Shown: positions 4,606-21,068 of the stretch, one piece after another
How positions within the stretch are numbered: position 1 is the stretch's first letter
Layout of the letters: every line of letters begins with the position of its first letter
Origin: Solirubrobacterales bacterium
Lineage (GTDB): Bacteria; Actinomycetota; Thermoleophilia; Solirubrobacterales; 70-9
Direction of reading: 5' to 3'
Assembly: GCA_035573435.1 (NCBI GenBank)
Contig: DATMZR010000021.1
Span: 1 to 64,000 of the forward strand
Length of the DNA stretch: 64,000 nt
Notes under the pieces: generated by a model
What the model saw: only the letters and a program-made list of their open reading frames with translations
Told to the model about the DNA's origin: nothing
Databases searched by the model: none
Position numbers and translations under genes: made by a program

Positions 4606-5711
4606 CCGGGGCCAGCCCGCCCTCGGTCGCACACGCGCTCTGGAGCGGGGGCGCGGGCGGCATCGAGCGACTGGTTCACGACCTCGCGCAACGCCAACGG
4701 GAGCAGGGGATGACCGTGTCGGTCGCCTTCGCCCAGCTACGAGGTCCCTTCGCCGAAGGCATGCGTGACGCGGGCCTGCAGGTGGTCGACCTCGGACTCG
4801 GATCGGGCTACGACCTTCGACCTCCGCGGATTCGCGGTGGGGCACACGAGCTGGGCGCGTTCGACGTGATCCACCTGCACGCGTTCAATCTCCCGCTGGG
4901 CGCGATCGCGATCGCGAGTCGACGCCCCATCGTTTTCACCGAGCACGGCAATTTCGGCGCCGGCCGAAAGGTCGGGATCGCGGGACAACTCAGGCGCCCC
5001 GCGCAGCGAGCTTTCATCAGCCGAGCCTGCACTGAGATCGCCGCGAACTCCAGGTGGACCGCCGCCCGCATGGCCGACCTGTACGGCATCGAAGCGGACC
5101 GCGTTACGGTGATCCACAACGGCATCGGCGGCTCACCCGCCGAGGGCTCGGTTGCGCGGGAAAGGGACGACCGGATGGTGGTCGCGTTCGTAGGCCGGCT
5201 GGCAGGGTTCAAGCGCGTCGATCGGCTCCTGAAGGCGCTGTCGCAAGTCCGGGAGGGACAGCCGATCCGGGCCCTGATCGTGGGCGAGGGACCTCTTGAG
5301 GGAGAGCTGAAGGATCTGACCTCCCGCCTCGGTTGCGATTCGTTCGTCGAGTTCCTTGGCTATCGCTCCGACGTAGAGGCCATCCTGTCCGCGACCGATG
5401 TGCTCGTGCAGCCGAGTGAAGGAGAGCCTTTCGGGCTGGCCATCCTCGAGGCCTGCCGTCAGGGAGCGCTGCCGGTCGTCTTCGCCGACGGGGGCGGCGC
5501 GCTGGAGGTCCTGCCGCCGGACGGCCGCATCGTCGCAGACGAGTCCGATCTGGCCAGCGTTCTGGTCGAGTTGGCCGACGACGCCGCTGTGCGCAGCGAG
5601 ACGGCCCGGCAGGCGCGGGCGCAATGGGCGGTGGAGCGGTTCCCGATCGACCGCACGGCGGCTGCCTACCTGACGCTCTATCGCTCAGCGCTGGAGCGCC
5701 GCCAAGCGTGA
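4602..5711 (+). CDS. Glycosyltransferase, GT4 type
   Basis: A 369-residue GT-B glycosyltransferase. N-terminal ALWSGGAGGIERLVHDLA is the typical glycine-rich loop plus helix of the GT4 family, followed by VIHLHAFN and FTEHGNFG. The C-terminal donor domain begins with VVAFVGRLAGFKRVDRLLKA, then ALIVGEGPLEGEL, FLGYRSDVEAIL and the E-x7-E-like region PSEGEPFGLAILEACRQG. ATG 4602 overlaps the preceding stop (ATGA). It probably adds a hexose to the lipid-linked repeat unit exported by the flippase encoded next. Of the glycosyltransferases here it is the most canonical. Confidence 0.88.
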   Translation: MTGASPPSVAHALWSGGAGGIERLVHDLAQRQREQGMTVSVAFAQLRGPFAEGMRDAGLQVVDLGLGSGYDLRPPRIRGGAHELGAFDVIHLHAFNLPLGAIAIASRRPIVFTEHGNFGAGRKVGIAGQLRRPAQRAFISRACTEIAANSRWTAARMADLYGIEADRVTVIHNGIGGSPAEGSVARERDDRMVVAFVGRLAGFKRVDRLLKALSQVREGQPIRALIVGEGPLEGELKDLTSRLGCDSFVEFLGYRSDVEAILSATDVLVQPSEGEPFGLAILEACRQGALPVVFADGGGALEVLPPDGRIVADESDLASVLVELADDAAVRSETARQARAQWAVERFPIDRTAAAYLTLYRSALERRQA

Positions 5712-7135
5712 GCCGACTCCGCGCCAAGATCTCGAGGCTCCGAGTCCGGATCGCAGTACGCCGTCGGGGCGAGCTTGGCGGCTTTGCCACGGACTCGCTC
5801 TATGTCGCTGTCTGGCAGGGAGCCACCTCTCTCGCGGACCTGGCCCAGATCGCGCTGATCGCTCACGTGCTCGGCCTCGACCAGTACGGGCGGTTCGCGG
5901 TGGTCGTCGCGTTCGTGATGCTGGTGACCGCGTTCTTCGACGTCCGGGTAGGTGTAGCCGCAACGACTCTCGGCGCTCGAGAGCTACAAGACCCGCGACG
6001 CTCTGCAGGGATATTCCAGCTCAGCTACCTGATCGACGCGGTCACCGGCGTCCTCGCGTTCGTCGTCGTGGTGGCGCTTTCCTTCGCCGTCGGGCCCGGC
6101 CTGGTCGGCGGCAACGGCACTCTCCTGATCGTCCTGTTCGCAATCGGGGTGCTCGCCTCGACGCTGGAGGACTCCTCGCTGGCAGTGCTACGGCTACTGG
6201 ACCGCTTTCGCCTGGTGGCCGCGTACACGGTCGGGCTGGAGGCCGCGAGAGTGGCCCTGGTGGCCGGCGCGCTCCTGTTCTCCGAGGGGCTGGTGCCGGT
6301 GATCCTGGCGCTGGTCGCGCAGAAGATGCTCGTCATGGTTGTGCAGGTGGCCACCGCCGCGAGCTCGTTCCGAGCCGCGATGGGCCGCCCCCTGCTCAGG
6401 AAGTCGGCGCTCGACGCCGTGACCGACAAGCGCCGCCAGATGATCAACACCGTGCTCCATACCAACGTCGTTTCGTACGCGCGGCTCGCGCAGACCCAGC
6501 TTCCGACCGTCGTGATCGGTGCCATCTCCGGAACCGCGCAGGCGGGTCTCTACAGAATCGGCATGGCCGCGGCCGCGGCCGTCGGACGGCTCGCCGATCC
6601 GGCCTACGCCGCCCTCCTACCACGCGTATCCCGGCTGTTCGCGGCCGGCCGTCAGGACAGCGTGAAGCGCCTCATCGAGCGGGCGTCGCTGATTTCCGTT
6701 CCTGTGATGATCGTTGCGCTGGCGGTCGTGGTCCTGCTGCGAGATCCGATCCTGCAGTTGCTCGGCGGCCAGGCAGCTACGGATGCCGCCCCGGTGCTCG
6801 CCGCCGGAGCTGTTGCCTTCGCGATCAACGGAGCCGTGTTCTGGAACGTCGGAGTGCTCTTCGCCGCGGGCCGGGCTCGGACCGTCTCGCTGATCGCGGT
6901 GATCACAGCGCTGACACAGGCAACGCTGCTCGTCCCGCTCGTCCTCGCTCTGGATGCCGAGGGTGCCGCGCTTTCCTTCCTCGTGAGCATGGTGCTGGCG
7001 AACCTCGCAATGACGGCCGTGGCGCTTCGACTCCTTGCAAGGGGAGCTCACCGCGGCCCGGCGGCGGGAGCCTCTCCAGGAATGCGTGAAGGGGATGCGG
7101 CCACCGGCGGCGCGGTCACGGAGGAAGGGATCTAG
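5708..7135 (+). CDS. Polysaccharide flippase (Wzx/MOP superfamily)
   Basis: A 475-residue polytopic membrane protein with about twelve to fourteen hydrophobic segments, beginning with a short basic cytoplasmic tail and GGFATDSLYVAVWQGATSL, then AHVLGLDQYGRFAVVVAFV, a pattern typical of oligosaccharide flippases of the MOP exporter superfamily. It should flip undecaprenyl-linked glycan units to the outer leaflet for polymerisation or ligation. GTG 5708 overlaps the stop of the glycosyltransferase gene before it. It is the last gene of the plus-strand chain; the next gene is convergent and begins one base after its stop. Confidence 0.82.
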   Translation: MSRLRAKISRLRVRIAVRRRGELGGFATDSLYVAVWQGATSLADLAQIALIAHVLGLDQYGRFAVVVAFVMLVTAFFDVRVGVAATTLGARELQDPRRSAGIFQLSYLIDAVTGVLAFVVVVALSFAVGPGLVGGNGTLLIVLFAIGVLASTLEDSSLAVLRLLDRFRLVAAYTVGLEAARVALVAGALLFSEGLVPVILALVAQKMLVMVVQVATAASSFRAAMGRPLLRKSALDAVTDKRRQMINTVLHTNVVSYARLAQTQLPTVVIGAISGTAQAGLYRIGMAAAAAVGRLADPAYAALLPRVSRLFAAGRQDSVKRLIERASLISVPVMIVALAVVVLLRDPILQLLGGQAATDAAPVLAAGAVAFAINGAVFWNVGVLFAAGRARTVSLIAVITALTQATLLVPLVLALDAEGAALSFLVSMVLANLAMTAVALRLLARGAHRGPAAGASPGMREGDAATGGAVTEEGI

Positions 7136-8161
7136 TCAATCGCTCAACAGCTCCTGCCACATCCGCAGGGCAACTTGGTCCGAATACCTGGCGCGGATTC
7201 GCTGCCACGCTCTTGTGCCCATTGCCACCGCCTGATCGGGATCCGTTAGCAAGCGCCGCAGGGCATCTACCCACTGATCGTTGGTGCTCGCATGGACGCC
7301 GGTGTCTCCCTCAATCACAACCTGATCGGTGATGCCCACGGGGCTGGCCACCGTCGGCAGCGCATGGCCGCCGTACAGAATTGCTCTAAAGCCGCATTTG
7401 CCTCTCGCCCATGGATCGTCAGTGAGCGGAGCGACGCCGATCCTGGCGCCCAACAGGGCATCGAGCTCCGCTGCCCTGGACCAGCGGACGAACTCAGTGG
7501 GGACCGTGGCGGTGACCCAGGGCTGCGAACTCACCACCGTGAACTCGAACTCGATCTCCTCCCGGAGTTGGCGGAGGGGATCGGCGATCAGCCCGAGGTA
7601 CTGGAGATTGGCGGCAACGCCAACCCACACCACGCTCGGGTTTCCGGTCCGGCGAGGGACCTCCTGGATGGGCGAAACCGTGGTCGGGATCTCGATTACC
7701 CGCGGACAGTGCCGACGAGCGAATGCCGCCAGGATGGCGTTGCCGGCCACACAAGCGTCAACTGCCCGAAGCGTCCTGATCAACGGCCGCCGGCGAGCGG
7801 ACGCGCGTGGATATCCTCGCATCGCGGTCCGCCCTATCGCCCTTGCTGCTTGGGCAAGCCGCGAGCCCTCCACGTCCGGGGGCACGGCGTAGAGCGCGTC
7901 GTCCATGTCGAAGATGATCCGGTCGTACGCTGCTCGCAGCTGAGCCAGCTGCGACGGCGCCGGGAGAACCCGCTGAAGGATCAGCGTCGTGCCCGAGCCG
8001 GCAGCCGCGGCTATGTCATTCAGCTGCACCTCGGTCGGAAACGACCCTGCCGAAAACATGTCCACGGGCCACGTGCCATCGCGTGAGAACGCCCCGAGCC
8101 GGCGCTGGGCGCTCGGCGCATCCCACCCTCCCGGCGATGCGGCCACTATCCGCTCGGTCAT
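7136..8161 (-). CDS. Glycosyltransferase-like protein
   Basis: A 341-residue protein with a GT-B-like layout: an N-terminal domain holding LILQRVLPAP and YDRIIFDMDDALYA, then CVAGNAILAAFARRHCPRVIEIPTT-type interdomain sequence, and a C-terminal domain with VVWVGVAANLQYL and IGVAPLTDDPWARGKCGFRAILYGGHALP, close to the donor-binding region of family 4 transferases. ATG 8161 is preferred over upstream codons because a -10-like element (8169-8174) lies seven bases before it. It is transcribed towards the flippase gene and away from asnB, so it forms its own unit within the glycan locus. Substrate unknown. Confidence 0.65.
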   Translation of the reverse strand: MTERIVAASPGGWDAPSAQRRLGAFSRDGTWPVDMFSAGSFPTEVQLNDIAAAAGSGTTLILQRVLPAPSQLAQLRAAYDRIIFDMDDALYAVPPDVEGSRLAQAARAIGRTAMRGYPRASARRRPLIRTLRAVDACVAGNAILAAFARRHCPRVIEIPTTVSPIQEVPRRTGNPSVVWVGVAANLQYLGLIADPLRQLREEIEFEFTVVSSQPWVTATVPTEFVRWSRAAELDALLGARIGVAPLTDDPWARGKCGFRAILYGGHALPTVASPVGITDQVVIEGDTGVHASTNDQWVDALRRLLTDPDQAVAMGTRAWQRIRARYSDQVALRMWQELLSD

Positions 8162-8168
8162 CTCGGTC

Positions 8169-8174
8169 AAGGTA
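8169..8174 (-). promoter_or_regulatory. -10 element of a leaderless promoter
   Basis: TACCTT on the minus strand ends seven bases before the ATG at 8161, so the transcript would start at or next to the start codon. Same geometry as many other genes in this window. Confidence 0.5.
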
Positions 8175-8210
8175 TACGTATGGTCATGAGCCCGGCCGGG
8201 GACCAGTGAG

Positions 8211-10064
8211 ATGTGCGGGATAGCTGCCTGCTTCGATTTGAGCGGCAAGGACCGAGCTGCGCCGTGGGCTCGGCCGCACATGCGTCATCGGGGACCGGAC
8301 AGCGAGGGATGCGTCTCCCTGGACTCACCGCAAGGAGCGCTCGAGCACTGCCGCCTCGCGATCATCGATCCCGACAATCGCGACGCTGATCAGCCGATGT
8401 CCGACCCAAGCGGGCGCTGGACGATCACCTACAACGGCGAGATCTTCAACTATCGCGAGCTCCGGGCCGAGCTCGAGCGACGCGGCGCCGAATTCCGGAC
8501 CCACTCCGACACGGAGGTGGTCCTACAGAGCTACATCATGGACGGCGACGACGCCCTTTCGCGCCTGCGGGGCATGTTCGCCTTCGTCATCGTCGACCGT
8601 AAGTCCGGGGAGATCATCGCCGCTCGGGACCAGATCGGCGTGAAGCCGCTCTACTGGTCAATGGCCGATGGCCTCTTGATGGTGGCGAGCGAGCTGCGCA
8701 CTCTTCTGGCCCATCCGCACCTGGCGCCGAAGCTCGACCGGGCGGGCGTGATCGAGTACCTCGCCTTCGGCCACACCTCGGACGAGCGAACGCTCGTCGA
8801 CGGCGTGAGCAAGCTCCCGCCCGGACATGCGCTGCGGGTCCGCGATGGCGCCGTGGCCGTGTTCGAGTACTGGGACCCGCTGCCCCCCGATCGCGGGCAG
8901 CTCAATGGGGATCTGGCAGGAGATCTACGGGAGCGGCTGAGCGATGCGGTCGCCGCGTCCTTGGTTGCGGATGTCCCGATCAGCATGATGCTCTCGGGCG
9001 GTCTCGACTCCGCGACGATCGCCGTGCTGGCGGCCCGTCATGGAAGGCCGGCCGACATGACCGCTTACTCGGTCTCGTTCGGCCTCCCGGATGATGAGTC
9101 GGCCGTTGCCGCCCGGCTGGCGCGCGACCTGGGTTTCCGGCACCGAGAGATCCTGCTCACCGAGGAGATCGTCGCGGAGAGCTTCGACGATTGGCTCGCC
9201 GGCCTCGACGTACCCAATGCAAATCCCACCTGGATCGCTGTGTCCCAGATCGCCCGCGCCGTGCGTGAGGACGGCGGCAAGGTTCTTCTCTCAGGAGACG
9301 GAGGTGACGAGCTCCTGGGCGGCTACAGCCGCTGGATGACCTACCTGCGTTTCTACGAGCGGGCGTGGCGACGCGCCCCGGCGCCGATGCGGCACCTTGC
9401 CGGCCGCACGGCGAAACCGTTCGCGCGCGGCCTGGCCGGAGACATCGCCCGGCGGGCTCGCGACGGCGGCGAGTTGTTCGTCGGCAGCCGGCCCTTCCAC
9501 GACGATGCGCTTGAGGCTTGCCTGGGTCCCGCGGGCAGAGAAACGCTCGCAGGCGCTCCCCCGGAGGCTCCCGTGGCGGACCTTCGACGCCGTTTCGACG
9601 AGCGGATGCCCGAGGGGTCGGACTACCTCGCCTGGATGTCCTACCTCGCCCTCAAGAACAACCTCGTCGAGGACTACCTGGTCAGGCTCGACAGGATGGG
9701 GATGGCGCACTCGGTCGAGGGCCGGGTGCCGCTGCTCGATCCGACGCTCGTCAGATGGGCATTCCGGGTTCCGCAGTCGCGCAAGGTTCCGGACTTCGAG
9801 CAGAAGGCACTGATGCGCTCGGCGGTAACCCCCCTGCTTCCCGACTACATACTCGATCGACCGAAGCAGGGATTCTGCGCACCGGTTGGGGATTGGGCCT
9901 TGGCCCTGCTGGGGAAGCAACAGATGACGGGGTCGGTGCTGGTCGAGGAGAAGCTGGTTGCCCCGGACGCCTTCGACAGCCTGCGGGAGGCGGGAACGGT
10001 CAACGCGTCGTTCGCCTCCTGGACCCTCGGAACTCTGGCCTCATGGTGCGAACTAAACCTGTGA
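8211..10064 (+). CDS. asnB: Asparagine synthetase (glutamine-hydrolysing), AsnB type
   Basis: A 617-residue class II amidotransferase. Cys2 directly after the initiator Met (MCGIAACFD) is the glutaminase nucleophile; HRGPDSEG, YNGEIFNYRELR and RDQIGVKPLYW are classic N-terminal domain motifs. The synthetase domain carries the ATP pyrophosphatase loop LSGGLDSAT at about residue 261 and SGDGGDELLGGYSRW. It uses glutamine and ATP to amidate aspartate or a carboxylated sugar. AsnB homologues in polysaccharide loci often amidate uronic acids; this location favours that, but free asparagine synthesis cannot be excluded. The 3' end overlaps the convergent methyltransferase gene by 12 bases. Confidence 0.85.
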   Translation: MCGIAACFDLSGKDRAAPWARPHMRHRGPDSEGCVSLDSPQGALEHCRLAIIDPDNRDADQPMSDPSGRWTITYNGEIFNYRELRAELERRGAEFRTHSDTEVVLQSYIMDGDDALSRLRGMFAFVIVDRKSGEIIAARDQIGVKPLYWSMADGLLMVASELRTLLAHPHLAPKLDRAGVIEYLAFGHTSDERTLVDGVSKLPPGHALRVRDGAVAVFEYWDPLPPDRGQLNGDLAGDLRERLSDAVAASLVADVPISMMLSGGLDSATIAVLAARHGRPADMTAYSVSFGLPDDESAVAARLARDLGFRHREILLTEEIVAESFDDWLAGLDVPNANPTWIAVSQIARAVREDGGKVLLSGDGGDELLGGYSRWMTYLRFYERAWRRAPAPMRHLAGRTAKPFARGLAGDIARRARDGGELFVGSRPFHDDALEACLGPAGRETLAGAPPEAPVADLRRRFDERMPEGSDYLAWMSYLALKNNLVEDYLVRLDRMGMAHSVEGRVPLLDPTLVRWAFRVPQSRKVPDFEQKALMRSAVTPLLPDYILDRPKQGFCAPVGDWALALLGKQQMTGSVLVEEKLVAPDAFDSLREAGTVNASFASWTLGTLASWCELNL

Positions 10065-10754
10065 GGGCTTCTGTGCCTCGATCAGCGCCAGCGGGTCGCT
10101 GCACGGACCGATCGGAGGCACCGAGAATCCGGCCTCAGTCGCCAGGGTTGCCCATCGATCCAGGGCGGGCCGGGTGACCGAGAGCTCGAGGTAGAGGGCG
10201 TAGTTTCGCGCCGGGGTGAGCTTTGCCAACGAGCGCACGGGTGCGAACCTCAAAATCGATTGCTGAAACCGCTCCCGCACCCGCTTGGAGTGACGTGGAT
10301 CGGGGACTGTGAAGAGCGCCCAGCCTCCGGGCTTCAGGAGGCGGGCCATCTCCGCCAACGCAACCGCCGGATCGTTCAAGTACTCGAGGACGCTGGAGGA
10401 GATCACAGCGTCGAACAGGTTGGCATCGAGAGGCAGGGGAAACGGTCGATCAGCGTCCTCGAGGACCCATCTCACGGAATCGCCCTCGGGCTCGCTCCTG
10501 GCCATGTCCAGCATTCGGTTCGAGATGTCGGCCCCGGTCATCGAAAAGCCGACACGCGCGAGCGACCGGGTTATCCGGCCGGAGCCGCAGCCGAGGTCGA
10601 GGACGGCGCCGTCTCTGACACCACGACGTCGCAGTGCGGTGCTGAATCGCGCGATGCGATTCTTGACCGCCGCGTCGTGCAGGTACCTGTCCTCCCAGGT
10701 GGCGGCATGGCTCTCGAAGTAGGCGTGCACCCGGTCCTGATGCTTAGGCTCCAT
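10053..10754 (-). CDS. SAM-dependent methyltransferase, class I
   Basis: A 233-residue Rossmann-fold methyltransferase. The SAM-binding motif I is VLDLGCGSGR (residues 51-60), followed by GADISNRML (acidic residue of strand 2), ISSSVLEYLNDP and RLLKPGGWALFTVPD, the usual order in UbiE/UbiG-like enzymes. It lies 26 bases after the epimerase gene on the same strand and is probably co-transcribed with it. The likely role is O- or N-methylation of a sugar in the surface glycan. ATG 10754 is the natural start, preceded by TAGGA. Confidence 0.8.
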   Translation of the reverse strand: MEPKHQDRVHAYFESHAATWEDRYLHDAAVKNRIARFSTALRRRGVRDGAVLDLGCGSGRITRSLARVGFSMTGADISNRMLDMARSEPEGDSVRWVLEDADRPFPLPLDANLFDAVISSSVLEYLNDPAVALAEMARLLKPGGWALFTVPDPRHSKRVRERFQQSILRFAPVRSLAKLTPARNYALYLELSVTRPALDRWATLATEAGFSVPPIGPCSDPLALIEAQKPSQV

Positions 10755-10780
10755 TCCTACGCAATCTCTACACAGCTGGC

Positions 10781-11755
10781 TTAAACGAACGTTGCGGTGC
10801 CGCCAGAGGCCCGCCGCTCCTCATACCATGAAAAGACGCGTCGCAAACCCTCACGGGCACTGACGGAGGGCTCGTAGCCGAGCGCGCGGCGCGCACTCGA
10901 GATGTCCGCCAGTGAGTGCCGAATGTCACCGGGCCTTGGATCCGTGTAGATCGGCTCGATCTCCTTCCCGGTCAGCTCGCGAAGCTCGGCTATCAGAGCG
11001 TTCAGCGAGATCCGGTCGCCGCAGGCGACGTTGAACGTCTCCCCAGCTACGCCATCGGCGGCCCCAGCCAGCAGAGTCGCGTCGACGACATTCTCGATGT
11101 AGGTGAAGTCCCGGGATTGCTCCCCGTCTCCGTGGATCCTCGGGCGCTGGTCATTCAGGAACGCCGCGATGAACATCGGGATCACGGCCGCGTACTGGGA
11201 GGTGGGATCCTGGCGAGGACCGAAGACGTTGAAGTAGCGCAGGGCGACGGCCTCGAGCCCGTAGACGTGCCAGAAGCTTCGGCAATGGCCCTCGCCGGCG
11301 AGCTTGGAGACGGCGTAAGGCGCGATTGGCATGGGGCGGTGGTCCTCTCGCTTTGGGAGCTCCTCGTTTGCCCCGTACACCGACGACGACGACGCGTAGA
11401 CGACCCGCCTGACGCCCGCGTCACGAGCGGCGAGGAGGACGTTGAGGGTCCCGGTGATGTTGACCGCGTTGCTCGTCAGCGGGTCCTGGACCGACCGAGG
11501 GACCGAGGGAAGCGCTCCCTGGTGGAAGACGAGCTCGCAGCCGCTTATCGCGTTGTGGACGCGCTCGTAGCTCTGTAGGTCGCCCTCGATCAACTCGATC
11601 TCACCGAGCACCTCGCCGAAGTTCTCCCGGCGGCCCGTGGCGAAGTTGTCGAGCACCCGCACGGTGCAGCCGTCGCGCACCAGGCGATCGACGAGGTTCG
11701 AGCCGATAAAGCCTCCCCCACCCGTCACCAGGACCTTTTTGTCCCCTGTCGACAC
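10781..11755 (-). CDS. NAD-dependent epimerase/dehydratase (GalE-like extended SDR)
   Basis: A 324-residue extended short-chain dehydrogenase. NAD-binding glycine motif TGGGGFIGSN at 11-20, Ser cluster ASSSSVYG at 121-128, and catalytic Tyr147-x3-Lys151 (YAVSK). The pattern RYFNVFGPRQDPTSQYAAVIP resembles WbpP/TviC-type UDP-N-acetylhexosamine 4-epimerases, so it may supply UDP-GalNAc or UDP-galactose to the glycan pathway. GTG 11755 is used; a TAGGGT element lies eleven bases upstream. It is divergent from the nucleotidyltransferase gene, sharing a short intergenic region of about 22 bases. Confidence 0.82.
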   Translation of the reverse strand: MSTGDKKVLVTGGGGFIGSNLVDRLVRDGCTVRVLDNFATGRRENFGEVLGEIELIEGDLQSYERVHNAISGCELVFHQGALPSVPRSVQDPLTSNAVNITGTLNVLLAARDAGVRRVVYASSSSVYGANEELPKREDHRPMPIAPYAVSKLAGEGHCRSFWHVYGLEAVALRYFNVFGPRQDPTSQYAAVIPMFIAAFLNDQRPRIHGDGEQSRDFTYIENVVDATLLAGAADGVAGETFNVACGDRISLNALIAELRELTGKEIEPIYTDPRPGDIRHSLADISSARRALGYEPSVSAREGLRRVFSWYEERRASGGTATFV

Positions 11756-11777
11756 GGCGGCATGGAACCCTACAAGG

Positions 11778-12713
11778 ATGCCTCATGGGAAACTGAGCCC
11801 CGCGCTGCGTGCCGCCGCGCGCAGCTTGCGGGCCGATGCGGTGACCGTGGAGGTCTTCTCGAAGCTGCGGGAGTCGGGCGTTCGAGCGATCCTCCTCAAG
11901 GGCCCCTCGATCGCCCGGTGGCTGTACGCGGATGGGACGCCTCGGCCGTACGGCGATACAGACCTCCTGGTCGCGCCTCAGACGCTCCAGGCGACCTCGG
12001 GAGCGCTCCGGGATGCCGGCTTTCGTGAACAGCCCGGGGTGAGCTCCTTGACCTGGTATCGGCGATCGGATCGAAGCATCGTGGACGTGCACGACACGCT
12101 GTTCGGCGCCGAGTCACCTGGCCAGGAGGCTTGGCGGGCTCTCTCGGAGGGGACCGAGAAGATGCGGGTCGCGGGGCTGGACGTGGAGGTGCTCGGCCGC
12201 CCGGCACGTCTCCTCTACATCGCCCTGCACGCGGCGCAGCACGAGAGCGATGGCTTCCAGCAACCGCTGAGGGACCTCGAGCGGGCCCTGCGCCACGCCG
12301 ACGAGCAGCAATGGGGAGAGGCTGCCGCGCTCGCCACCAACCTGCAGGCTGGGCCCACCTTCGCCGCCGGGCTTCGGTGCCACCCCGACGGCGCCCGTCT
12401 GGCCGACCGGATCGAGCTGTCGGACGAGCGCCCGGTGATGCTTTCCCTGCGCGAGCGAAGCGGGCGGCAACTCTCAGTCACGCTCGAGCGGCTTGCGACC
12501 ACCCCCGGCACGGGCGCCCGACTCCGCCTGCTTGCTCGGCGGGCCGCACCCCCGCCCGAGTACATGCGCTGGCGATATCCGGCGCTTGCAGGGCGCGGGC
12601 CGGCGGGCCTGGTGCTCGCCTACCTCTGGCGCCCGGTCTCGACCGTACTGCGCCTGCCGGCGGCGATCGTCGCCTGGCGGCGGGCACGAGCTGGGCGCAA
12701 TCGGTCGCCCTGA
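11778..12713 (+). CDS. PF14907-type nucleotidyltransferase
   Basis: A 311-residue protein of the uncharacterised nucleotidyltransferase family often seen in lasso-peptide and polysaccharide loci. Signature: ILLKGPSIARWLY (KG at 41-42) followed by RPYGDTDLLV, with Asp60 and Asp62 as likely metal ligands; later LLYIALHAAQHES has the His-rich helix of this family. ATG 11778 has AAGGA upstream. Its proximity to a lasso-type precursor, cyclase and HPr-kinase-like gene suggests it may act on the peptide together with the kinase, as proposed for paeninodin-type clusters. That role is inferred from context. Confidence 0.68.
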   Translation: MPHGKLSPALRAAARSLRADAVTVEVFSKLRESGVRAILLKGPSIARWLYADGTPRPYGDTDLLVAPQTLQATSGALRDAGFREQPGVSSLTWYRRSDRSIVDVHDTLFGAESPGQEAWRALSEGTEKMRVAGLDVEVLGRPARLLYIALHAAQHESDGFQQPLRDLERALRHADEQQWGEAAALATNLQAGPTFAAGLRCHPDGARLADRIELSDERPVMLSLRERSGRQLSVTLERLATTPGTGARLRLLARRAAPPPEYMRWRYPALAGRGPAGLVLAYLWRPVSTVLRLPAAIVAWRRARAGRNRSP

Positions 12714-13465: not shown

Positions 13466-13624
13466 TCAGACGGTCGAGCCGTCGTTGAACAGCTCGTCGG
13501 TGGGAGCCTGTCCCTGTTGCGTCAGCTCAGCAAACGTGCCGAGCACGACGATAGTGGGGGCCTCGTACCCGCCTGACTTCCCCTGCAACGAAGTGACTTG
13601 GCTCTCGCCGAAGTCGGATCCCAT
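13466..13624 (-). CDS. Lasso-type RiPP precursor peptide
   Basis: A 52-residue peptide with a typical lasso leader: Tyr20-x2-Pro23-x-Ile25-x2-Leu28-Gly29-x-Phe31-x2-Leu34-Thr35, the YxxP...LG.F..LT motif read by the PqqD-like recognition protein. Thr35 is expected at position -2 of the leader. The C-terminal part (residues 37-52) begins QGQAPTDELFND and ends GSTV. Depending on cleavage, Glu44 would be residue 8 (core from Gln37) or 7 (core from Gly38), both allowed as the ring acceptor. Start ATG 13624 has AGGGAG upstream; the longer frame to 13684 lacks such support. It lies 22 bases after the cyclase gene, at the operon's end. Ser50 is a possible kinase target. Confidence 0.78.
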   Translation of the reverse strand: MGSDFGESQVTSLQGKSGGYEAPTIVVLGTFAELTQQGQAPTDELFNDGSTV

Positions 13625-13646: not shown

Positions 13647-15350
13647 TCAGCGCCCGCCTCGCGAACGCTCAAACGCCTTCGCAAAGGCTACCAGCTGACG
13701 GCCCCGATGTACATCCCAATACGCAATCTTGCTCCTCGGTGGCCAACCCGGTGCGAGAATCGGCTCGAGCACGCTCGGGATCTCGCCTGACCACGCACGG
13801 AATTCGGTCCCACCGGGGGGACGGGGGCGCCCCTTGTCGGGTCGCTCCAGGTTGACCGCCGGCACGTCACCGGCGAGGGCGGCGCGCAGCAGCCGCTTGG
13901 TTCCCGGCCCGACCAGCTCCGAGGGATGGCACTCGAAACCCAGTTCCAGCAGCTCCCTGGTCACGAAGGGGAAGCTCCGCCGCACTCCGAGCGAGCTCGT
14001 CACCTCCCAGTGCATTCCCAGGAACCCCTGGCGCTCGAGGAACATCGCCAGATAGGGCATCGGCCCGTCATCGTGTGCGGCCGCGCGGCGGCGGTCGCGC
14101 AACCAGTCTCGATACTGGTCGCGAAGCTCCGGCCGCACCAGCGACGGCAGCTCCCCCGGCCAGGGCACCGGCGGGCGCCGCAAGGCGCGGCGCAGGCGAT
14201 AGACGAACCAGCGACGGATATCGGCCGGGCCGGTGGGAAGCGCCCGTCGTGTGCCCCAGAGCCCGCTCAGGGTGGTGTGGCGGGCCCAGTCGCGCAGGGT
14301 CAGCGCCGAGCCGACCGTGTGGTCGGCGAACTCGCCCCCGACCAGCACGGAGACGGGCCATTCGTCGGCCACCGACGGCAGCAGGCAGAGGTAGGGCATG
14401 GGGACGTGGAAAGGGACCCGCGGCTCGTCGAGCAGGGCGAGGCGGCGCTCGCGGTCGACCACGACCATCTTGCGGCGGCGAAACCCAACCGCCTCCGTGA
14501 GCGCGTCGACGTATCGGCGGTCCCGGGCTCGCGCCGCCTCGTCGTCGGAGAGCACGGTCAGCGTGCTGACCTCCCGCCCCAGGGTGCCGGCGGCGAGCGC
14601 CCCCACCGCGGAGGAATCGACGCCGCCGCTCAATGCGAGGAGGTTCTCCCCCTCCGGGGCCAGGTCGCGCTCCAGCGTTGCGAGGAGCGCCGAGCGCAAG
14701 CGCTCGGCGTGATCGGCGGCTGGTCGCGGCGCCGCACCCTGACGGGGATCCCACCAGCGGCCGAAGGCCGCGCGGCCGCCGTCAAGACGCACGTACTCTC
14801 CGCGCCCCACCAGACGCACCCCGGCCACGAAGGTGCGCCGGTCGGGCGCCGCGTCGTAGCCCGAGGTCAGGATTGCGTTGACCAGCGGGTCGAGTGCAAG
14901 CTCTCCTGGATGGAACCGCAGCAGGTGCGCGAGCGTCGTGGCGACGGTCCAGCGCTCACCATCGTCCGCCACGTAGAAGGGCACCAGGCCGCCCGCGGAG
15001 CGGACGACCGTCACCTCCCCGCTCGGCCGGAATTGCACCAGGCCGAAGTCCCCCGGCAGCTGGTCGAGGCTCTCGGGCCGCTCCGCAACCAGATGCGCGA
15101 TCTCCTCCCAGCGACGCCCGCACGCGGCGAGCTCGTCGCGGCCCTGGGCGAACGCCAGGCCGGCGGCTCGCACGGGCTCGTCGTCCGGCGAGCTGCCGGA
15201 AAAGCGGCTCACCGCGACAAGCCTTCCCGGCGCGGGGTCCCAGGTCGGATCGAAGGCGCCGCTTGCCTCGATCCGCTCGCGGACAGCGCCGAGCTCCCCG
15301 GGGTCCAGGGTCCCGACCGCAAGCAGGTTGGCGAGGGGCCGGAGGCTCAC
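13647..15350 (-). CDS. Lasso peptide cyclase, asparagine-synthetase-like
   Basis: A 567-residue protein with the two-domain asparagine synthetase fold but no Cys2, so it has no glutaminase activity, as in lasso cyclases (McjC/LarC type). The ATP pyrophosphatase loop LALSGGVDSSAVGAL carries SGGVDS at 241-246. It would adenylate the side-chain Asp/Glu of the core and close the macrolactam with the core N-terminus. GTG 15350 overlaps the kinase stop by four bases; the longer open frame upstream is antisense-free overlap with the kinase gene and was dropped. The precursor gene follows 22 bases downstream. Confidence 0.85.
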   Translation of the reverse strand: MSLRPLANLLAVGTLDPGELGAVRERIEASGAFDPTWDPAPGRLVAVSRFSGSSPDDEPVRAAGLAFAQGRDELAACGRRWEEIAHLVAERPESLDQLPGDFGLVQFRPSGEVTVVRSAGGLVPFYVADDGERWTVATTLAHLLRFHPGELALDPLVNAILTSGYDAAPDRRTFVAGVRLVGRGEYVRLDGGRAAFGRWWDPRQGAAPRPAADHAERLRSALLATLERDLAPEGENLLALSGGVDSSAVGALAAGTLGREVSTLTVLSDDEAARARDRRYVDALTEAVGFRRRKMVVVDRERRLALLDEPRVPFHVPMPYLCLLPSVADEWPVSVLVGGEFADHTVGSALTLRDWARHTTLSGLWGTRRALPTGPADIRRWFVYRLRRALRRPPVPWPGELPSLVRPELRDQYRDWLRDRRRAAAHDDGPMPYLAMFLERQGFLGMHWEVTSSLGVRRSFPFVTRELLELGFECHPSELVGPGTKRLLRAALAGDVPAVNLERPDKGRPRPPGGTEFRAWSGEIPSVLEPILAPGWPPRSKIAYWDVHRGRQLVAFAKAFERSRGGR

Positions 15351-16312
15351 CGCGGTTGGTCGCCCCGAGGCCCGAGTGCGCCGGCCCCGGCCAGCGCATC
15401 GTGCAGGACCTCGGGCAGGCCGGGGTCTTGGAGGCGTCCCTGGGGCAGCTCGGCCCTGAAGGCAGGGACGGCCTGCGCGATCGCCGCACAGGCGACGAAA
15501 TGGGCGCGCACGGGGCCGGGTGCGCGCCACCCGGTCACCCGCGGACAACGCAGTAGCGAGTCCAGCGCCCGGCGGGGGGTCAGCCGGGTCACCGCTGGCT
15601 CGCGCGCCCCGCGCGGCCAGCTCGGAAACGCGATCGCGCCCAGCGGCGTGGCGGCGCCGGTCGCCGGGCGGGCCTCGACCGCCACGCGTCCATCCGCCGT
15701 CCTGCCCGCCCCTCCCCCCACGTGATCGGCGATCGTGGCGGCCTGCGGGCGCAGCCGCAGCTCGTGCGGGCCGTGGTGGACGAGCAGCGCGCCCTCGCGT
15801 TGCTCCACCCGCGCCGCGTCGTCGCCGACGATCGCTCCTCCCGCGGCGCAGAGCAGCGCCGCCACCGTCGACTTCCCCGCCCCGGTCGGGCCCGGGAAGG
15901 CGATCGCCGCGCCGTCCAGCTCCACGGCGCTGGCGTGAAGGACGGCGGCTCCACGAAGGCCGAGCACGATCGCCAGCAGGTTGCCGGCCAAGAGAACAGG
16001 CACCATCGCCTCCCCGCGCCCGGGCGCCGGTCGAGCGACGATCGCACCGCGCTCAAGGTCGACCTCGAACTCCCCCGTGGCGAAGAAGCGGACGGTCAGC
16101 GCCTCGTCCCGCAGGGCGGCCGCGTAACGCGCCCCCGGCTCGTCGAGCGCGGCCACGAGCTCCCCCGCCGGAGCCGACTGCGCCGGGCGCGAGGGAGCGT
16201 CGAGGTGAACCTCGAAGTCAACCGACCCGTCCGCGACGCCGGCCGCGCCGGGGATCGCGACGTCGCCGCACAGCCGCAGGCCGTGCAGGAGCTGCGTGGA
16301 ACCGCTGGACAT
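15347..16312 (-). CDS. HPr-kinase/phosphorylase-like protein of the lasso cluster
   Basis: A 321-residue kinase homologue. The core VLHASAVELDG (126 onward) leads into the P-loop GPTGAGKST (141-149) and a GGAIVGDDAARV segment that matches the HPr kinase Walker-B-like acidic pair. In paeninodin-type lasso clusters such kinases phosphorylate a C-terminal Ser of the precursor; here Ser50, three residues from the C-terminus, could be the target. It is coupled to the cyclase by a GTGA overlap. The residues needed to recognise HPr itself are not evident, and no PTS genes are nearby, which favours a RiPP tailoring role. The substrate is inferred. Confidence 0.75.
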   Translation of the reverse strand: MSSGSTQLLHGLRLCGDVAIPGAAGVADGSVDFEVHLDAPSRPAQSAPAGELVAALDEPGARYAAALRDEALTVRFFATGEFEVDLERGAIVARPAPGRGEAMVPVLLAGNLLAIVLGLRGAAVLHASAVELDGAAIAFPGPTGAGKSTVAALLCAAGGAIVGDDAARVEQREGALLVHHGPHELRLRPQAATIADHVGGGAGRTADGRVAVEARPATGAATPLGAIAFPSWPRGAREPAVTRLTPRRALDSLLRCPRVTGWRAPGPVRAHFVACAAIAQAVPAFRAELPQGRLQDPGLPEVLHDALAGAGALGPRGDQPR

Positions 16313-16379: not shown

Positions 16380-17225
16380 CTAGCGGCAGTAGGCGTAGGC
16401 GGTCAGCTTGGGGTGCCCGAGAGCCGCAAAGGCGGTCGCTCGCCAGCTGCGCTCGCCCCATCGCCTCGAACCGTGCACGATGGCGATGTCGTCCGTGTCG
16501 AGCTCGTCCGTGGCCCGCGAGAACTCGGAGAAGAAGCCGCCGGAGCGCAACTCCTCCGTTTGACGACAGGGCGCAGTCACCGACTGGCCGAACCGCTCGG
16601 TCTCGCTCGTGGTGATCGTCCTGCTTCTCGTCTTCAAGCCGGGTTCATGCCGGTCGCAGTAGACGAAGACGGTGTATTGGAGCGGACCGCCGCCGGGGTT
16701 GTAGACGGCCACCCTCCAAGTTCGGGCATCGGTGCGCCTCGAGGCCATCAGGTAGGTGCTCGCGTCCGGAGAGTCGAAGCCGCCCGCAACGGCCTCCTGC
16801 CCAGACTGGCACTGCGCGCTGCCACCGCCCCTGTTCCCCCCGCCCGGAACCGTGAACTGAGCGGACCTGGTAACGAGCCCGGGGTCGTTTCGAGCGCAAT
16901 AGACGTATGCCGTGGCCGTTCCGTCCCCCCCCAGGTTGCGGGCTCGAAGGCGCCACGCGCGACTTCCCTCGCGGGTGGAGTCGAGCGCCACCATCGCCGG
17001 CCCGAACTCCGTCAGGGGCGCGAAGAAGCCGCCCGAGACCGCCGTTCGGCCCGGCCCGCACGCGGCAAGGCCCTGACGCGTCTGGCCCCCCGGCACCGCG
17101 AAGCTCTTCGACTGCACGCCCAGCGCCGCGGCCGCCAGGCCGGCCGCCGCCAACAGAGCCACGAGCCCGGTCATGATCACGACCGCGGTCGCTCGCCGCC
17201 TCTGGAGCCTTTCCCCGTTTCGCAT
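16380..17225 (-). CDS. Secreted protein with three internal repeats
   Basis: A 281-residue protein with an N-terminal hydrophobic segment (VVIMTGLVALLAAAGLAAAAL) that could be a signal peptide or anchor. The rest is three related units of about 75-80 residues, each with a Cys followed by a GGF turn (AVSGGFFAP; AVAGGFDSP; LRSGGFFSE), a conserved Trp (AWRLRARN; TWRVAVYN; SWRATAFA) and a closing YxYC or similar (TAYVYCAR; VFVYCDRH; AYAYCR). The paired Cys of each unit suggests a disulfide and an extracellular location. I do not recognise the family. It lies between the kinase and RTX-like genes inside the lasso cluster. Confidence 0.65.
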   Translation of the reverse strand: MRNGERLQRRRATAVVIMTGLVALLAAAGLAAAALGVQSKSFAVPGGQTRQGLAACGPGRTAVSGGFFAPLTEFGPAMVALDSTREGSRAWRLRARNLGGDGTATAYVYCARNDPGLVTRSAQFTVPGGGNRGGGSAQCQSGQEAVAGGFDSPDASTYLMASRRTDARTWRVAVYNPGGGPLQYTVFVYCDRHEPGLKTRSRTITTSETERFGQSVTAPCRQTEELRSGGFFSEFSRATDELDTDDIAIVHGSRRWGERSWRATAFAALGHPKLTAYAYCR

Positions 17226-17311: not shown

Positions 17312-18556
17312 CTATACCGGCGTCTCGCAGTTGGTGATCGAGGCGTCGCCACCGTTGGTGCGGTAGGTGTCCGTGCCGCCCGCGCAGTCGAGCGTGTCGG
17401 CACCGTCCTCGCCCCACAGGAAGTCGCCGAAGGGGCTCCCCAGCAGCGTGTCGTTGCCGTCCCGGCCGAGCAGCTGCACGCCCTGGTTGGCGGACGCGGC
17501 GTTGACCCTGTCGGCGGCCCCGCTTCCGACGATCCGCTCGATGTCGCTGTGGACGTTCTCTGTCGTATTGCCGAAGCCGTCGCAGTCATCGGCGGCATTG
17601 TCGGTGTCGAGGTTGACCGCGAAGCCCGCGGTCACAGCCTGGCCCGCGCAGGTCGCAGCGACAGCCCCGGTATAGGGCGTCCCGTAGGTCACCGTGTCGA
17701 AGCCCGCGGCGCCGGTGGTGCCGTCGCCGTCGAAGATGTCGTTGCCCTCGCCCCCGCCCAGGATGTCCGCGCCGTTGCCGCCGGGGCAGCTGGCTGGGTC
17801 GCCGTTCAGGGTGTCGTTGCCGCCCGCCGAGCCGTTGGTGCTGCCCGGGTCGCCGACGATCGTGTTGGCGAAGCAGCTGCCGGTAATCGTGTCATTGAAG
17901 CTGCTTCCGGTGATCGATTCAACCGAGTCCTGCACGTTGTCGGTGCCGCCCTGGCCGTCGAGGTCGTTGGCGGTGTTGTCGATCGTCACGGTGGCCCCCG
18001 CGGTGGCGGCACTGTAAAGGGCCCGGTCGATCCCGCTACCGCCGTTCAGGGTGTCGTTGTCGGCTCCTCCGTCCATCCGGTCGCTCCCCGAACCGCCGTT
18101 CAGGGTGTCGTTGTCGGCAGCGCCTGTGATGACGTCGTTGGCGTCGCTCCCGGTGAGGCTGTCGATGCCAACTTCGCCGTTGATCGTGAACGGATCGTCG
18201 TTGACGCCGGCGGCGGTGACGCTGTCGTCTCGGTTACCGAGGTTGACGACCACCGAGGTCCAGGCGATGCCGTTACAGGTCACGTCGCCGCTGGCAGCGG
18301 TGCAGTTGGCGCTCGACTCGCTGATGCTGGTGCTCGCGTCGTGGAAGAGGTAGGTATTGGTGGCCGGGTGGGTGACGGTCAAGACGTTGAACTCGTTTCC
18401 GCCGGCCGTGAACGTGATCACCGTGCCCGAGGTGCTCACGGCCGCCGCCGAGGCGATCGCCGGCACGACGGCCAGCGCCCCGAGCGCCAGCGCTACGGCC
18501 AGCAGTGCACGCCGAACAAGCCCTCCTCGATTACGACTCATGCTGCTCGACGACAT
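17312..18556 (-). CDS. Secreted RTX-like (hemolysin-type repeat) protein
   Basis: A 414-residue exported protein. A signal peptide (LLAVALALGALAVVPAIASA) is followed by a beta-rich N-terminal region and blocks of Gly/Asp-rich nonapeptide-like repeats such as GSGSDRMDGGADNDTLNGG and GRDGNDTLLGSPFGD, which bind calcium in RTX proteins. It ends with ITNCETPV, a Cys-containing tail. No type I secretion genes are present, so Sec export is assumed. ATG 18556 is chosen over the longer frame because GGAGG sits five bases upstream; a putative ECF-type promoter motif lies at 18607-18622. Confidence 0.78.
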   Translation of the reverse strand: MSSSSMSRNRGGLVRRALLAVALALGALAVVPAIASAAAVSTSGTVITFTAGGNEFNVLTVTHPATNTYLFHDASTSISESSANCTAASGDVTCNGIAWTSVVVNLGNRDDSVTAAGVNDDPFTINGEVGIDSLTGSDANDVITGAADNDTLNGGSGSDRMDGGADNDTLNGGSGIDRALYSAATAGATVTIDNTANDLDGQGGTDNVQDSVESITGSSFNDTITGSCFANTIVGDPGSTNGSAGGNDTLNGDPASCPGGNGADILGGGEGNDIFDGDGTTGAAGFDTVTYGTPYTGAVAATCAGQAVTAGFAVNLDTDNAADDCDGFGNTTENVHSDIERIVGSGAADRVNAASANQGVQLLGRDGNDTLLGSPFGDFLWGEDGADTLDCAGGTDTYRTNGGDASITNCETPV

Positions 18557-18606
18557 CTCGACCTCCGTGGACCCTCGCTTCTTCCCGGGAAGGGAATTCA
18601 ACTCGT

Positions 18607-18728: not shown

Positions 18729-18995
18729 TCAGTCCTCGAGCAGGTCGTGGCTGGCAAGCTCGGAGAGGAAGCCGTCGACGTCGGATTCGGCGTCGTGGCG
18801 GCTGACGCCGCACTCCCGGCTCAGCCGCTCGACGAGCTCCTCGCGGCTCGCGCCCTCGACCAGCGCCGGCCAGAGCGTGGCGCCGCTCGGGTTGATCGCC
18901 AGATAGAGCGAGCGGCGTAGGTCGAGAGCCACGATCTCGCCCTCCACGGTGCGCCACTCGAGCGCGTCAGCGCGGACTCGCACAGGCTCCGCCAT
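18729..18995 (-). CDS. PqqD-like RiPP recognition protein (lasso B1)
   Basis: An 88-residue PqqD-family protein. The characteristic motif is present in the middle: LDLRRSLYLAINPSGATLW, followed by a helical half with DAESDVDGFLSELASHDLL. In split lasso systems this small protein binds the leader peptide through the YxxP motif and presents it to the B2 peptidase. It starts eleven bases after the B2 gene on the same strand, the usual B1/B2 pairing in reverse order. ATG 18995 is the only suitable start; the long frame upstream of it is a shadow of the B2 and permease genes. Confidence 0.85.
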   Translation of the reverse strand: MAEPVRVRADALEWRTVEGEIVALDLRRSLYLAINPSGATLWPALVEGASREELVERLSRECGVSRHDAESDVDGFLSELASHDLLED

Positions 18996-19006: not shown

Positions 19007-19489
19007 CTACCGACGGCGCGGACGGCCTCCCTGCGGGCCCCCGTACGACGGTGCGGGGCGGCGAAGGAGCTCGTGGAACCGCCGGTGATCGTGCGGGTCG
19101 TGGTCGCCAGCCGCGGCGACCCTCTCCCCCGCTCCGGCGAGGCCGAGGAGCGACGGCTCGAGGCCCGCGTCCACGTGGACCAGCGGGTCGCCGTCGAGCC
19201 ACGCGTGAGCGCGGAACCCGGCGGGATCCGTGACGCCAACAATCAGGTCGCGCCGGCGTCCGTGCGCGGCCTCCCAAGCCTGGAGCACTATCGACCTCAC
19301 CAGGCAGCTCTCGCCGCCGCGGCGAAGCACGGCGCGAACCCCTCGCTCGGCCTCGGGAGACAGCGGAGGCGGAGCCGGCGGGGCGAGCGCAGCCTCGAGC
19401 CCCTCGGCGCCCAGCAGCCGCCTGGTGCGGCGCGCCGTCCGCAGCGCCCACCACGCCGCGCGCAGGTTGTCCGGATGCAGCCGTCGCAT
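19007..19489 (-). CDS. Lasso peptide leader peptidase, transglutaminase-like (B2)
   Basis: A 160-residue protein with the transglutaminase-like cysteine protease core of lasso B2 peptidases: ESCLVRSIVLQAW with the nucleophile Cys62, and FRAHAWLDGDPLVH with His95 and nearby Asp residues completing the site. It cuts the leader after the Thr-x pair to free the core for cyclisation. Start ATG 19489 lies 23 bases after the permease stop, which fits an operon; the longer open frame reaches into the permease gene. The C-terminal 25 residues are Pro/Arg-rich and probably disordered. Confidence 0.83.
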   Translation of the reverse strand: MRRLHPDNLRAAWWALRTARRTRRLLGAEGLEAALAPPAPPPLSPEAERGVRAVLRRGGESCLVRSIVLQAWEAAHGRRRDLIVGVTDPAGFRAHAWLDGDPLVHVDAGLEPSLLGLAGAGERVAAAGDHDPHDHRRFHELLRRPAPSYGGPQGGRPRRR

Positions 19490-19512: not shown

Positions 19513-20322
19513 TCAGTACTGCGCCAGGGAGCCCGTGCGGCGGGCACGCCATACCGACGCCCTGAACCCCAGCAGGGCCAGCGGGAGGAGAATCGCGACT
19601 GAGCCGTAGAGGCCCGCGAGCTGCCCGGGCTCCACGTCGCCGTCCAGCAGCGATGCCCGCACCACGTCCAGTCCCCAGGTGAACGGCACCGCCTTGGCGA
19701 CGGCCTCGATCGGCTGCGGCATGACCTCGATCGGGAAGTAGACCCCGCCGAGCAGTGCAAGCGCCGTCACCACCAGTCCGAGAAGCACGGTCGTCCGCTT
19801 GAAGACCACGGTCAGGGCGGCAACGGCCACGCCGAGGGAAGCGAACAGCCCCACGCATCCGACGAGCGCCACCGCCGCCACCACGATGGAGCCTGGGCCG
19901 ACGTGCAGGTCGAGTCCGAAGACGATGATCGCAGCGGCCATCAGCAGTAGCCCGTCCAGGGTCGCCCGCGCGATGTCGTAGATCGCGCTCGAAATGATGA
20001 TCAGCGAGGGGCTCGTCGGCGTCGCCATGAGCGCCTCGAAGGTGCCGGTCGTCTGCTCCTCGCGAAGCTTGCGGGAGAAAGAGGCGAGTCCGATCTGAAC
20101 GATGGTGAGCAGCGCCAACCCGACCGCCGCGTATCCAAAGTAGCCGCCACGCAGGTCCTGACGGGCCCCGAATTCCGCGTTGTCGATCACTCGGCTGAGG
20201 TAGTAGAACAGCGCCAGGAGCAGGACCGTCGACAGCGTCCGGAGCACGAACGTCGCGCGGTAGGAGAGGTCGATCCGCAGGTCACGTCGCACGAACGCCG
20301 CCAGCACCGTGAGCGTGCTCAT
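19513..20322 (-). CDS. ABC-2 type transporter permease
   Basis: A 269-residue integral membrane protein with about six transmembrane segments and the ABC-2 pattern: an amphipathic N-terminus (AAFVRRDLRIDLSYRATFVLRT), EEQTTGTFEALMATPTSP in the coupling region, and LGGVYFPIEVMPQPIEAVAKAVPFTWGLDVVR near the C-terminus. It pairs with the ATPase upstream (ATGA overlap at 20319-20322). By position it should export the mature lasso peptide or give self-immunity, the role played by LarE/McjD-type exporters, although those are often single-chain. Substrate inferred from context. Confidence 0.82.
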   Translation of the reverse strand: MSTLTVLAAFVRRDLRIDLSYRATFVLRTLSTVLLLALFYYLSRVIDNAEFGARQDLRGGYFGYAAVGLALLTIVQIGLASFSRKLREEQTTGTFEALMATPTSPSLIIISSAIYDIARATLDGLLLMAAAIIVFGLDLHVGPGSIVVAAVALVGCVGLFASLGVAVAALTVVFKRTTVLLGLVVTALALLGGVYFPIEVMPQPIEAVAKAVPFTWGLDVVRASLLDGDVEPGQLAGLYGSVAILLPLALLGFRASVWRARRTGSLAQY

Positions 20323-21068
20323 TGCTCGACCAGATCGAGGACAGCGGCCTGCCGTGCGTTGACGGCCTCCAGGAATGCCGACTCGAGCCGCGCGGGGTCC
20401 ATTCCGGCGGCTGCCTCATCGAGCATCACCCGGCCGGCCGCGAGCACGACGATTCGATCGGAGACCGCCGCTGCCTCGTGGAGATCGTGCGTGGCGAGGA
20501 GGATCCCGGCGCGCCGTTCCCGGGTCAGGCGGACCGCCATCTCGCGGAACTCCACGGCGGCAAGCGGATCGAGGCTTCGGGTCGGCTCGTCGAGGAGCAG
20601 GAGGGGCGGGCCGGCGAGCAGCGCGCGGGCCAGCGATAGACGGGCGCGCATGCCGGACGAATAGCCGCGCACCGGGCGTTCGGCCGCTTCGCCGAGGCCG
20701 ACCAGATCCAGCAACTCGGCCGCATCACGGATCGCCTCCGGCCGCCGTAACCCGTGCAGGGCGGCGAAGAACGCCAGGTTCTCCTTGCCGCTCAGACGCC
20801 AGTAGAGCGAATGCTCGTCCCCGATCATCAGGCCGACCTGCCGACGGGCGGCGGCAGGGTTGGCGACGACGTCGACTCCCCCGACGCTCGCCGTCCCCTG
20901 ATCGGGCAGGACCACGGTGCCGAGGATCCGAAGCAGGGTGCTCTTGCCGGCCCCGTTTGGCCCCAGCAGGGAAACGATCTCGCCGCGCTCGACGTCGAGA
21001 TCGAGTCCGTCGAGAGCGACCACGCTGTCGAAGCGCCTGACGAGGCCGCGGACCCGAATCCCGTCCAC
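20319..21068 (-). CDS. ABC transporter ATP-binding protein
   Basis: A 249-residue ABC ATPase. Walker A GPNGAGKST at 36-44, Q-loop region GLMIGDEH, signature YSSGMRARLSLARALL, Walker B LLLLDEPTRSLD and the H-loop ATHDLHEAA. It energises the ABC-2 permease encoded directly downstream with a four-base overlap. GTG 21068 is the start because a TAGCCT -10 element lies seven bases upstream, which makes this the leaderless first gene of the export-peptidase part of the lasso operon. The region upstream is shared with the divergent O-antigen-ligase homologue. Confidence 0.88.
   Translation of the reverse strand: MDGIRVRGLVRRFDSVVALDGLDLDVERGEIVSLLGPNGAGKSTLLRILGTVVLPDQGTASVGGVDVVANPAAARRQVGLMIGDEHSLYWRLSGKENLAFFAALHGLRRPEAIRDAAELLDLVGLGEAAERPVRGYSSGMRARLSLARALLAGPPLLLLDEPTRSLDPLAAVEFREMAVRLTRERRAGILLATHDLHEAAAVSDRIVVLAAGRVMLDEAAAGMDPARLESAFLEAVNARQAAVLDLVEQ

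What the first reader, a model, noticed from the sequence alone, without database searches (positions are those of the whole stretch)
13466..13624. Precursor with an ambiguous core start (TQQG) and a Gln or Gly at position 1
Thr35 at -2 would put Gln37 at core residue 1, which is rare for lasso peptides, with Asp43 or Glu44 at 7 or 8. Shifting by one gives Gly1 with Glu at 7. The C-terminus ends in GSTV, so the phosphorylation candidate Ser is three residues from the end instead of terminal as in paeninodin.
Basis: partly seen in the sequence, partly recalled or inferred. Interest (0 to 1): 0.65.

Follow-up and report, generated by a model that had tools for sequence, protein, structure and literature searches.

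The report
Lasso peptide gene with glutamine-first core
This short gene encodes the precursor of a probable knot-shaped (lasso) peptide in an actinobacterium; [quoted passage not shown]

Summary
Window 13466-13624 (-) is a 52-residue ORF with an ATG and a good ribosome-binding site, 22 bases behind a cyclase gene. It matches the lasso leader model NF033521 above its cut-off, and B1, B2, cyclase, HPr-kinase-like and ABC-transporter genes lie on the same strand.

The core-start ambiguity largely resolves. In this precursor and all 17 kindred ones with lasso enzyme homologues nearby, the leader Tyr and the Thr of 'LT/VT' are exactly 15 residues apart. This is the published Tyr(-17)/Thr(-2) ruler, and it puts Gln37 at core position 1 (QGQAPTDELFNDGSTV). 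The nearest relative (cyclase 44-45% identical) aligns without gaps as GSTTHVTDTSGLGSLPGL, with Gly1 and Asp8. Glu44 (position 8) is therefore the likeliest acceptor, giving a Gln1-Glu8 ring. The Gly1/Glu7 shift needs Thr at -3, seen in no relative.

The kinase keeps every catalytic residue, at the spacing reported for BsfK. A non-terminal Ser is not odd here: most kindred cores lack a terminal Ser.

New member of a known kind with a rare residue 1. Gln1 has been predicted once elsewhere; in the open papers I could read I found no report of one being made. Mass spectrometry would settle it.

The parts
13466..13624 (-). Precursor A: leader residues 1-36 (Tyr20, Pro23, Ile25, Thr35), predicted core residues 37-52 QGQAPTDELFNDGSTV
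   Evidence: NF033521 30.4 bits, cut-off 19; ATG with ribosome-binding site; spacing identical to 17 kindred precursors
13647..15350 (-). Cyclase C (asparagine-synthase-like, SGGVDS motif), GTG start overlapping the kinase stop
   Evidence: PF00733 above cut-off; below cut-off to macrolactam cyclase NF033561; 44-45% identical to the cyclase of the nearest related cluster
15347..16312 (-). HPr-kinase-like precursor kinase K with a complete catalytic motif
   Evidence: PF07475 and TIGR04352 below cut-off; catalytic residues at the same offsets as in BsfK
18729..18995 (-). B1, PqqD-family leader-binding protein
   Evidence: PF05402 above cut-off; closest solved chain TbiB1, E 7.6e-9; Tyr31 invariant in kindred B1
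19007..19489 (-). B2 leader peptidase
   Evidence: PF13471 and NF033537 above cut-off; Cys62 and His95 invariant in nine sequences
19513..20322 (-). ABC-2 permease, probable exporter subunit
   Evidence: PF01061 above cut-off
20319..21068 (-). ABC ATPase, probable exporter subunit
   Evidence: PF00005 above cut-off; homologues beside many kindred lasso loci
11637..12713 (+). PF14907 nucleotidyltransferase-like protein; possible tailoring enzyme, uncertain part of the cluster (opposite strand, one gene in between)
   Evidence: PF14907 90.8 bits; homologues beside several kindred lasso loci (L067, L072, L078, L079, L081)

Best explanation
The gene encodes a lasso peptide precursor. B1 binds the leader through Tyr20, Pro23 and Ile25. 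B2 cuts after Gln36 (Thr35 at -2) and frees the core QGQAPTDELFNDGSTV. The cyclase activates the side chain of Glu44 (core 8) with ATP and joins it to the amino group of Gln1, closing an 8-residue ring around the tail LFNDGSTV. The kinase probably phosphorylates Ser14 (or Thr15) of the precursor before cyclisation, and the ABC transporter exports the product. Shown: the genes, motifs, spacing and relatives. Inferred: cleavage site, ring residues, threading, phosphosite and export.
For: Leader model above cut-off. B1, B2, cyclase, kinase and ABC genes on the same strand. Tyr-to-Thr spacing of 15 in every kindred precursor, matching the published -17/-2 ruler (PMC10368454). Nearest relative has Gly1/Asp8 in ungapped register with Gln1/Glu8. 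Acids in kindred cores sit mainly at 8 or 9. B2 catalytic residues and kinase catalytic residues are intact.
Against: No product is known. The MccJ25 enzymes need Gly1 (PMC8498205). An N-terminal Gln can close to pyroglutamate before cyclisation (general chemistry). Asp43 at position 7 is an adjacent alternative acceptor. The cyclase is divergent and below the curated cyclase cut-offs. Only one close relative was found.
Confidence: 0.6

Rival explanations
1. Same lasso pathway and same Gln1 start, but Asp43 (core 7) is the acceptor, giving a 7-residue ring.
For: Asp43 is in range of the 7-9-residue rings (PMC8498205). In L054 and L055 the ring Asp is followed by x-x-Phe, and Asp43-Glu-Leu-Phe fits that pattern.
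Against: The known 7-residue rings I recall (xanthomonins) use Glu, so an Asp7 ring would be smaller still. The nearest relative uses position 8. Acid at position 7 alone is rare among kindred cores.
Confidence: 0.17
2. The leader is one residue longer: B2 cuts after Gln37 and the core is GQAPTDELFNDGSTV with a Gly1-Glu7 ring, like the xanthomonins.
For: Gly is the commonest residue 1, and Gly1/Glu7 rings exist (xanthomonins; title of a paper in the reference list of PMC13352647).
Against: Thr would be at -3 and Tyr at -18; no kindred precursor has this. Among the ten kindred cores with an acid at 8 or 9, the usual register gives Gly or Ala first in eight, the shifted one in two (hand tally).
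Confidence: 0.1
3. The product is not a threaded lasso: an unthreaded macrolactam, a linear pyroglutamate peptide, or another RiPP class using a lasso-like leader.
For: NF033521 leaders also occur in this class without lasso enzyme homologues nearby. The cyclase is divergent, and Gln1 could cap itself as pyroglutamate.
Against: B1, B2 and cyclase are all present, and B2 keeps Cys62 and His95. The nearest relative pairs the same cyclase type with an ordinary Gly1/Asp8 core.
Confidence: 0.1

Closest known systems
Paeninodin and kindred phosphorylated lasso clusters (PadeA/C/K/B1/B2)
   Same: Split B1/B2, cyclase, HPr-kinase-like gene and ABC transporter; firmicute order is C-A-K-B1-B2-D (PMC5067487)
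   Different: Gene order here is D-B2-B1-(two other genes)-K-C-A; the core ends in GSTV and not in Ser; Gln predicted at position 1
Lasso cluster of G236 contig C1 (L052; L060 in genome contigs, a Solirubrobacterales MAG)
   Same: Cyclase 44-45% identical; kinase and B1 homologues present; same leader spacing; Gly13-Ser14 in register
   Different: Gly1 and Asp8; kinase P-loop Lys replaced by Arg; core two residues longer; C-A-K order
Metanodin (Asn1 lasso peptide) and its relative with a predicted Gln1 (PMC12670498)
   Same: Amide side chain at residue 1 assigned from Thr at -2
   Different: Proteobacterial cluster without the split B1/B2 plus kinase layout; Asn and not Gln in the peptide that was detected; unrelated core sequence
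Bradymonas sediminis bsf cluster (PMC10368454)
   Same: Kinase motif with identical residue spacing; discrete B1; core start assigned by the same Tyr(-17) ruler; kinase acts on a residue other than a C-terminal Ser
   Different: Ile at -2; Gly1/Asp8; phosphosite Ser3, where this core has Gln3

Membership tests
Lasso peptide (RiPP) | Precursor with leader motif Tyr-x-x-Pro and Thr at -2 | tested here: met
   NF033521 above cut-off; spacing as in all kindred precursors
Lasso peptide (RiPP) | B1/B2 leader recognition and peptidase genes adjacent | tested here: met
   PqqD and Transglut_core3 families, NF033537 above cut-off; catalytic Cys and His conserved
Lasso peptide (RiPP) | Asparagine-synthase-like macrolactam cyclase adjacent | tested here: met
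   PF00733 above cut-off and SGGVDS motif; curated lasso cyclase models only below cut-off
Lasso peptide (RiPP) | Asp or Glu at core position 7-9 | tested here: met
   Asp at 7 and Glu at 8 if Gln37 is residue 1
Lasso peptide (RiPP) | Threaded macrolactam product | not testable with these tools
   Needs isolated product, MS/MS and NMR
Phosphorylated (paeninodin-type) lasso cluster | HPr-kinase-like gene with His, Lys and Asp-Asp motif | tested here: met
   All residues at the offsets of BsfK
Phosphorylated (paeninodin-type) lasso cluster | C-terminal Ser as phosphosite | tested here: not met
   Core ends in GSTV; Ser is third from the end. Not filed as paeninodin-type for this reason

The most novel reading that the evidence does not exclude
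A natural lasso peptide whose ring is closed through the amino group of glutamine, made by an actinobacterial cyclase that outcompetes pyroglutamate formation, and phosphorylated at a non-terminal Ser of the tail.
Probability: 0.35. Interest if true: 0.45.

Novelty: new member of a known kind. Interest (0 to 1): 0.32.

Why it matters
If made, it would add Gln to the short list of residues seen at position 1 of natural lasso peptides. It would show that a lasso cyclase can capture an N-terminal Gln before it turns into pyroglutamate, and would give an actinobacterial substrate for testing where HprK-like lasso kinases act when the terminal residue is not Ser. The spacing test is a simple way to assign core starts in unusual precursors.

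Tried and rejected
Precursor BLAST in 399 genomes of the class found no ortholog, only weak leader matches. A genome-contig scan with the cyclase alignment returned one locus, the same cluster as G236; a search of all 232 held genomes of the order found only that one again. Plasmid search: one 28% hit. A PDB search with the precursor found nothing. AlphaFold of the cyclase on a two-row alignment gave mean pLDDT 37 and was not used for a fold search. No Rfam family in the region. Gly1/Glu7 was rejected as the main reading for the spacing reason. Paeninodin-type membership was rejected because the C-terminal Ser feature is not met. Ser/Thr lies within the last three residues of 14 of 17 kindred cores, but I did not count this as support for kinase action because no background was computed.

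Full report
What is there. The minus-strand ORF at 13624-13466 encodes 52 residues, MGSDFGESQVTSLQGKSGGYEAPTIVVLGTFAELTQQGQAPTDELFNDGSTV. It starts with ATG behind AAAGGGAGAG and lies 22 bases after the stop of the cyclase ORF. NCBIfam's lasso leader model NF033521 matches residues 20-39 with 30.4 bits (cut-off 19), while Pfam has no family for it. In the whole genome this is the only NF033521 hit (1.5e-6), and the model is silent in 14 control genomes. A motif scan of the window found no second precursor.

Surroundings. On the same strand, reading downstream, lie an ABC ATPase (21068-20319), an ABC-2 permease (20322-19513), B2 (19489-19007, NF033537 above cut-off), B1 (18995-18729, PqqD family; its closest solved relative is TbiB1), an RTX-repeat protein, a protein without a Pfam match, an HPr-kinase-like protein (16312-15347), an asparagine-synthase-like cyclase (15350-13647, GTG start overlapping the kinase stop) and the precursor. 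B2 keeps the Cys and His that are invariant in nine aligned sequences. The kinase has His, three Gly, Lys, Ser and Asp-Asp at offsets 0, 15, 18, 20, 21, 22, 38 and 39 from the His. These are the offsets of H148, G163, G166, G168, K169, S170, D186 and D187 in BsfK. The cyclase is divergent: its NCBIfam hits, macrolactam cyclase NF033561 first, are all below cut-off. I therefore call it a lasso cyclase by context and by its nearest relative, not by a curated model.

Which register. Two tests were made. (1) Ruler. Work on B1 proteins places Tyr, Pro and Leu of the leader at -17, -14 and -12 and Thr at -2, and this was used to locate a core start where no product had been seen (PMC10368454). Here Tyr20 to Gln36 is 17 residues, so Gln37 is position 1, Pro23 is -14, Ile25 is -12 and Thr35 is -2. 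(2) Relatives. Precursors found by NF033521 in 399 genomes of the class and in the phylum were extracted with a motif that allows variable spacing. Every one has Thr exactly 15 residues after Tyr; the single entry printed as 12 has a second LT at 15. In the window precursor and the 17 kindred ones whose loci also hold lasso enzyme homologues, the segment from Tyr to -1 is 17 residues in all. Under this register the 17 begin with Gly 7, Ala 4, Thr 4, Val 1 and Asp 1, and their acids fall mainly at 8 (3) or 9 (7). Among the ten cores with an acid at 8 or 9, eight start with Gly or Ala; under a one-residue shift only two would (tally by hand). The shift that gives Gly1 here would be the sole exception to the ruler.

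Which acceptor. The nearest cluster found is G236:C1 (L052; a contig of the same length came back from genome contigs as L060, a Solirubrobacterales MAG). Its cyclase is 44-45% identical, and kinase and B1 homologues are present. Its precursor reads YESPQLQLLGTLPELTR|GSTTHVTDTSGLGSLPGL. Aligned without gaps, Gly1/Asp8 stand opposite Gln1/Glu8, and Gly13-Ser14 is shared. This favours Glu44. Asp43 remains possible: a D-x-x-F motif follows the ring Asp in L054 and L055, and DELF fits it. I give Glu8 about three to four times the weight of Asp7.

Is Gln1 plausible. Residue 1 in this class is not always Gly. Elsewhere, Leu1 (citrulassin N, PMC12971885) and Asn1 (metanodin, PMC12670498) were observed, and the metanodin paper notes a relative with Gln at that position. 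Against it, MccJ25 needs Gly1 (PMC8498205), and N-terminal Gln can close to pyroglutamate (general chemistry, not tested here). I found no report of a Gln1 lasso peptide in the searchable open papers, but subscription papers are not held, so absence is not proven.

Phosphorylation. Known kinases act on a C-terminal Ser (paeninodin, pseudomycoidin; PMC9266682) or on Ser3 (BsfK). Here the core has neither; its hydroxyl residues are Thr6, Ser14 and Thr15. Ser14 is the best candidate because it lies near the end and is in register with a Ser of the nearest relative. But that relative's kinase has Arg in place of the P-loop Lys, so the shared Ser is weak support. Only 4 of 17 kindred cores end in Ser, so a non-terminal Ser is ordinary in this class. 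A PF14907 gene (11637-12713, +) is related to genes beside several kindred lasso loci. PsmN, annotated as a nucleotidyltransferase, adds hexoses to phosphorylated pseudomycoidin, so a phospho-sugar decoration is conceivable but untested.

Limits. No orthologous precursor was found; the register rests on the leader ruler and one close relative. The cyclase fold model failed. No product, cut site, ring or threading has been shown. The cluster is rare: one further case in 232 genomes of the order.

Verdict. Real, probably a lasso peptide with Gln1 and Glu8. It is a new member of a known kind with one unusual residue, of moderate to low interest unless the product is shown.

Noticed in passing
L021, L027, L028, L029, L031, L033 (also L010, L023, L026): Peptides with an NF033521 lasso-type leader but a core around 'WQCS' (often EC-x-x-WQCSV-x-VPPP). 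Where wider stretches were fetched (L073, L075, L077, L065) no homologues of the lasso B1, B2, cyclase or kinase lie within about 8 kb; in L073 the gene is beside a multihaem cytochrome-like gene and a molybdopterin-oxidoreductase-like gene. Possibly another peptide family sharing the leader.
   Followed up: partly
L052, kinase at about 9035-9976 (+): The kinase of the nearest related cluster has Arg-Thr where the others have Lys-Ser/Thr in the P-loop (GQGRTT), so it may be inactive or altered.
   Followed up: no
L056 5592-5926 (+) and L057 near 8062 (-): Cores sharing SDGFTF or TDGWTF, with the acid at position 9, 10 or 13 when counted from Thr(-2); they may be larger rings or another product type.
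   Followed up: no
window 5624-12713 and 21149-23128: The lasso genes sit between polysaccharide genes: a flippase-like protein, a glycosyltransferase, an asparagine synthase, an epimerase, a methyltransferase and an O-antigen-ligase-like protein.
   Followed up: no
window 17312-18601 (-) and 16380-17225 (-): An RTX-repeat protein (PF00353) and a protein without a Pfam match lie between B1 and the kinase on the same strand; they may be insertions into the cluster.
   Followed up: no
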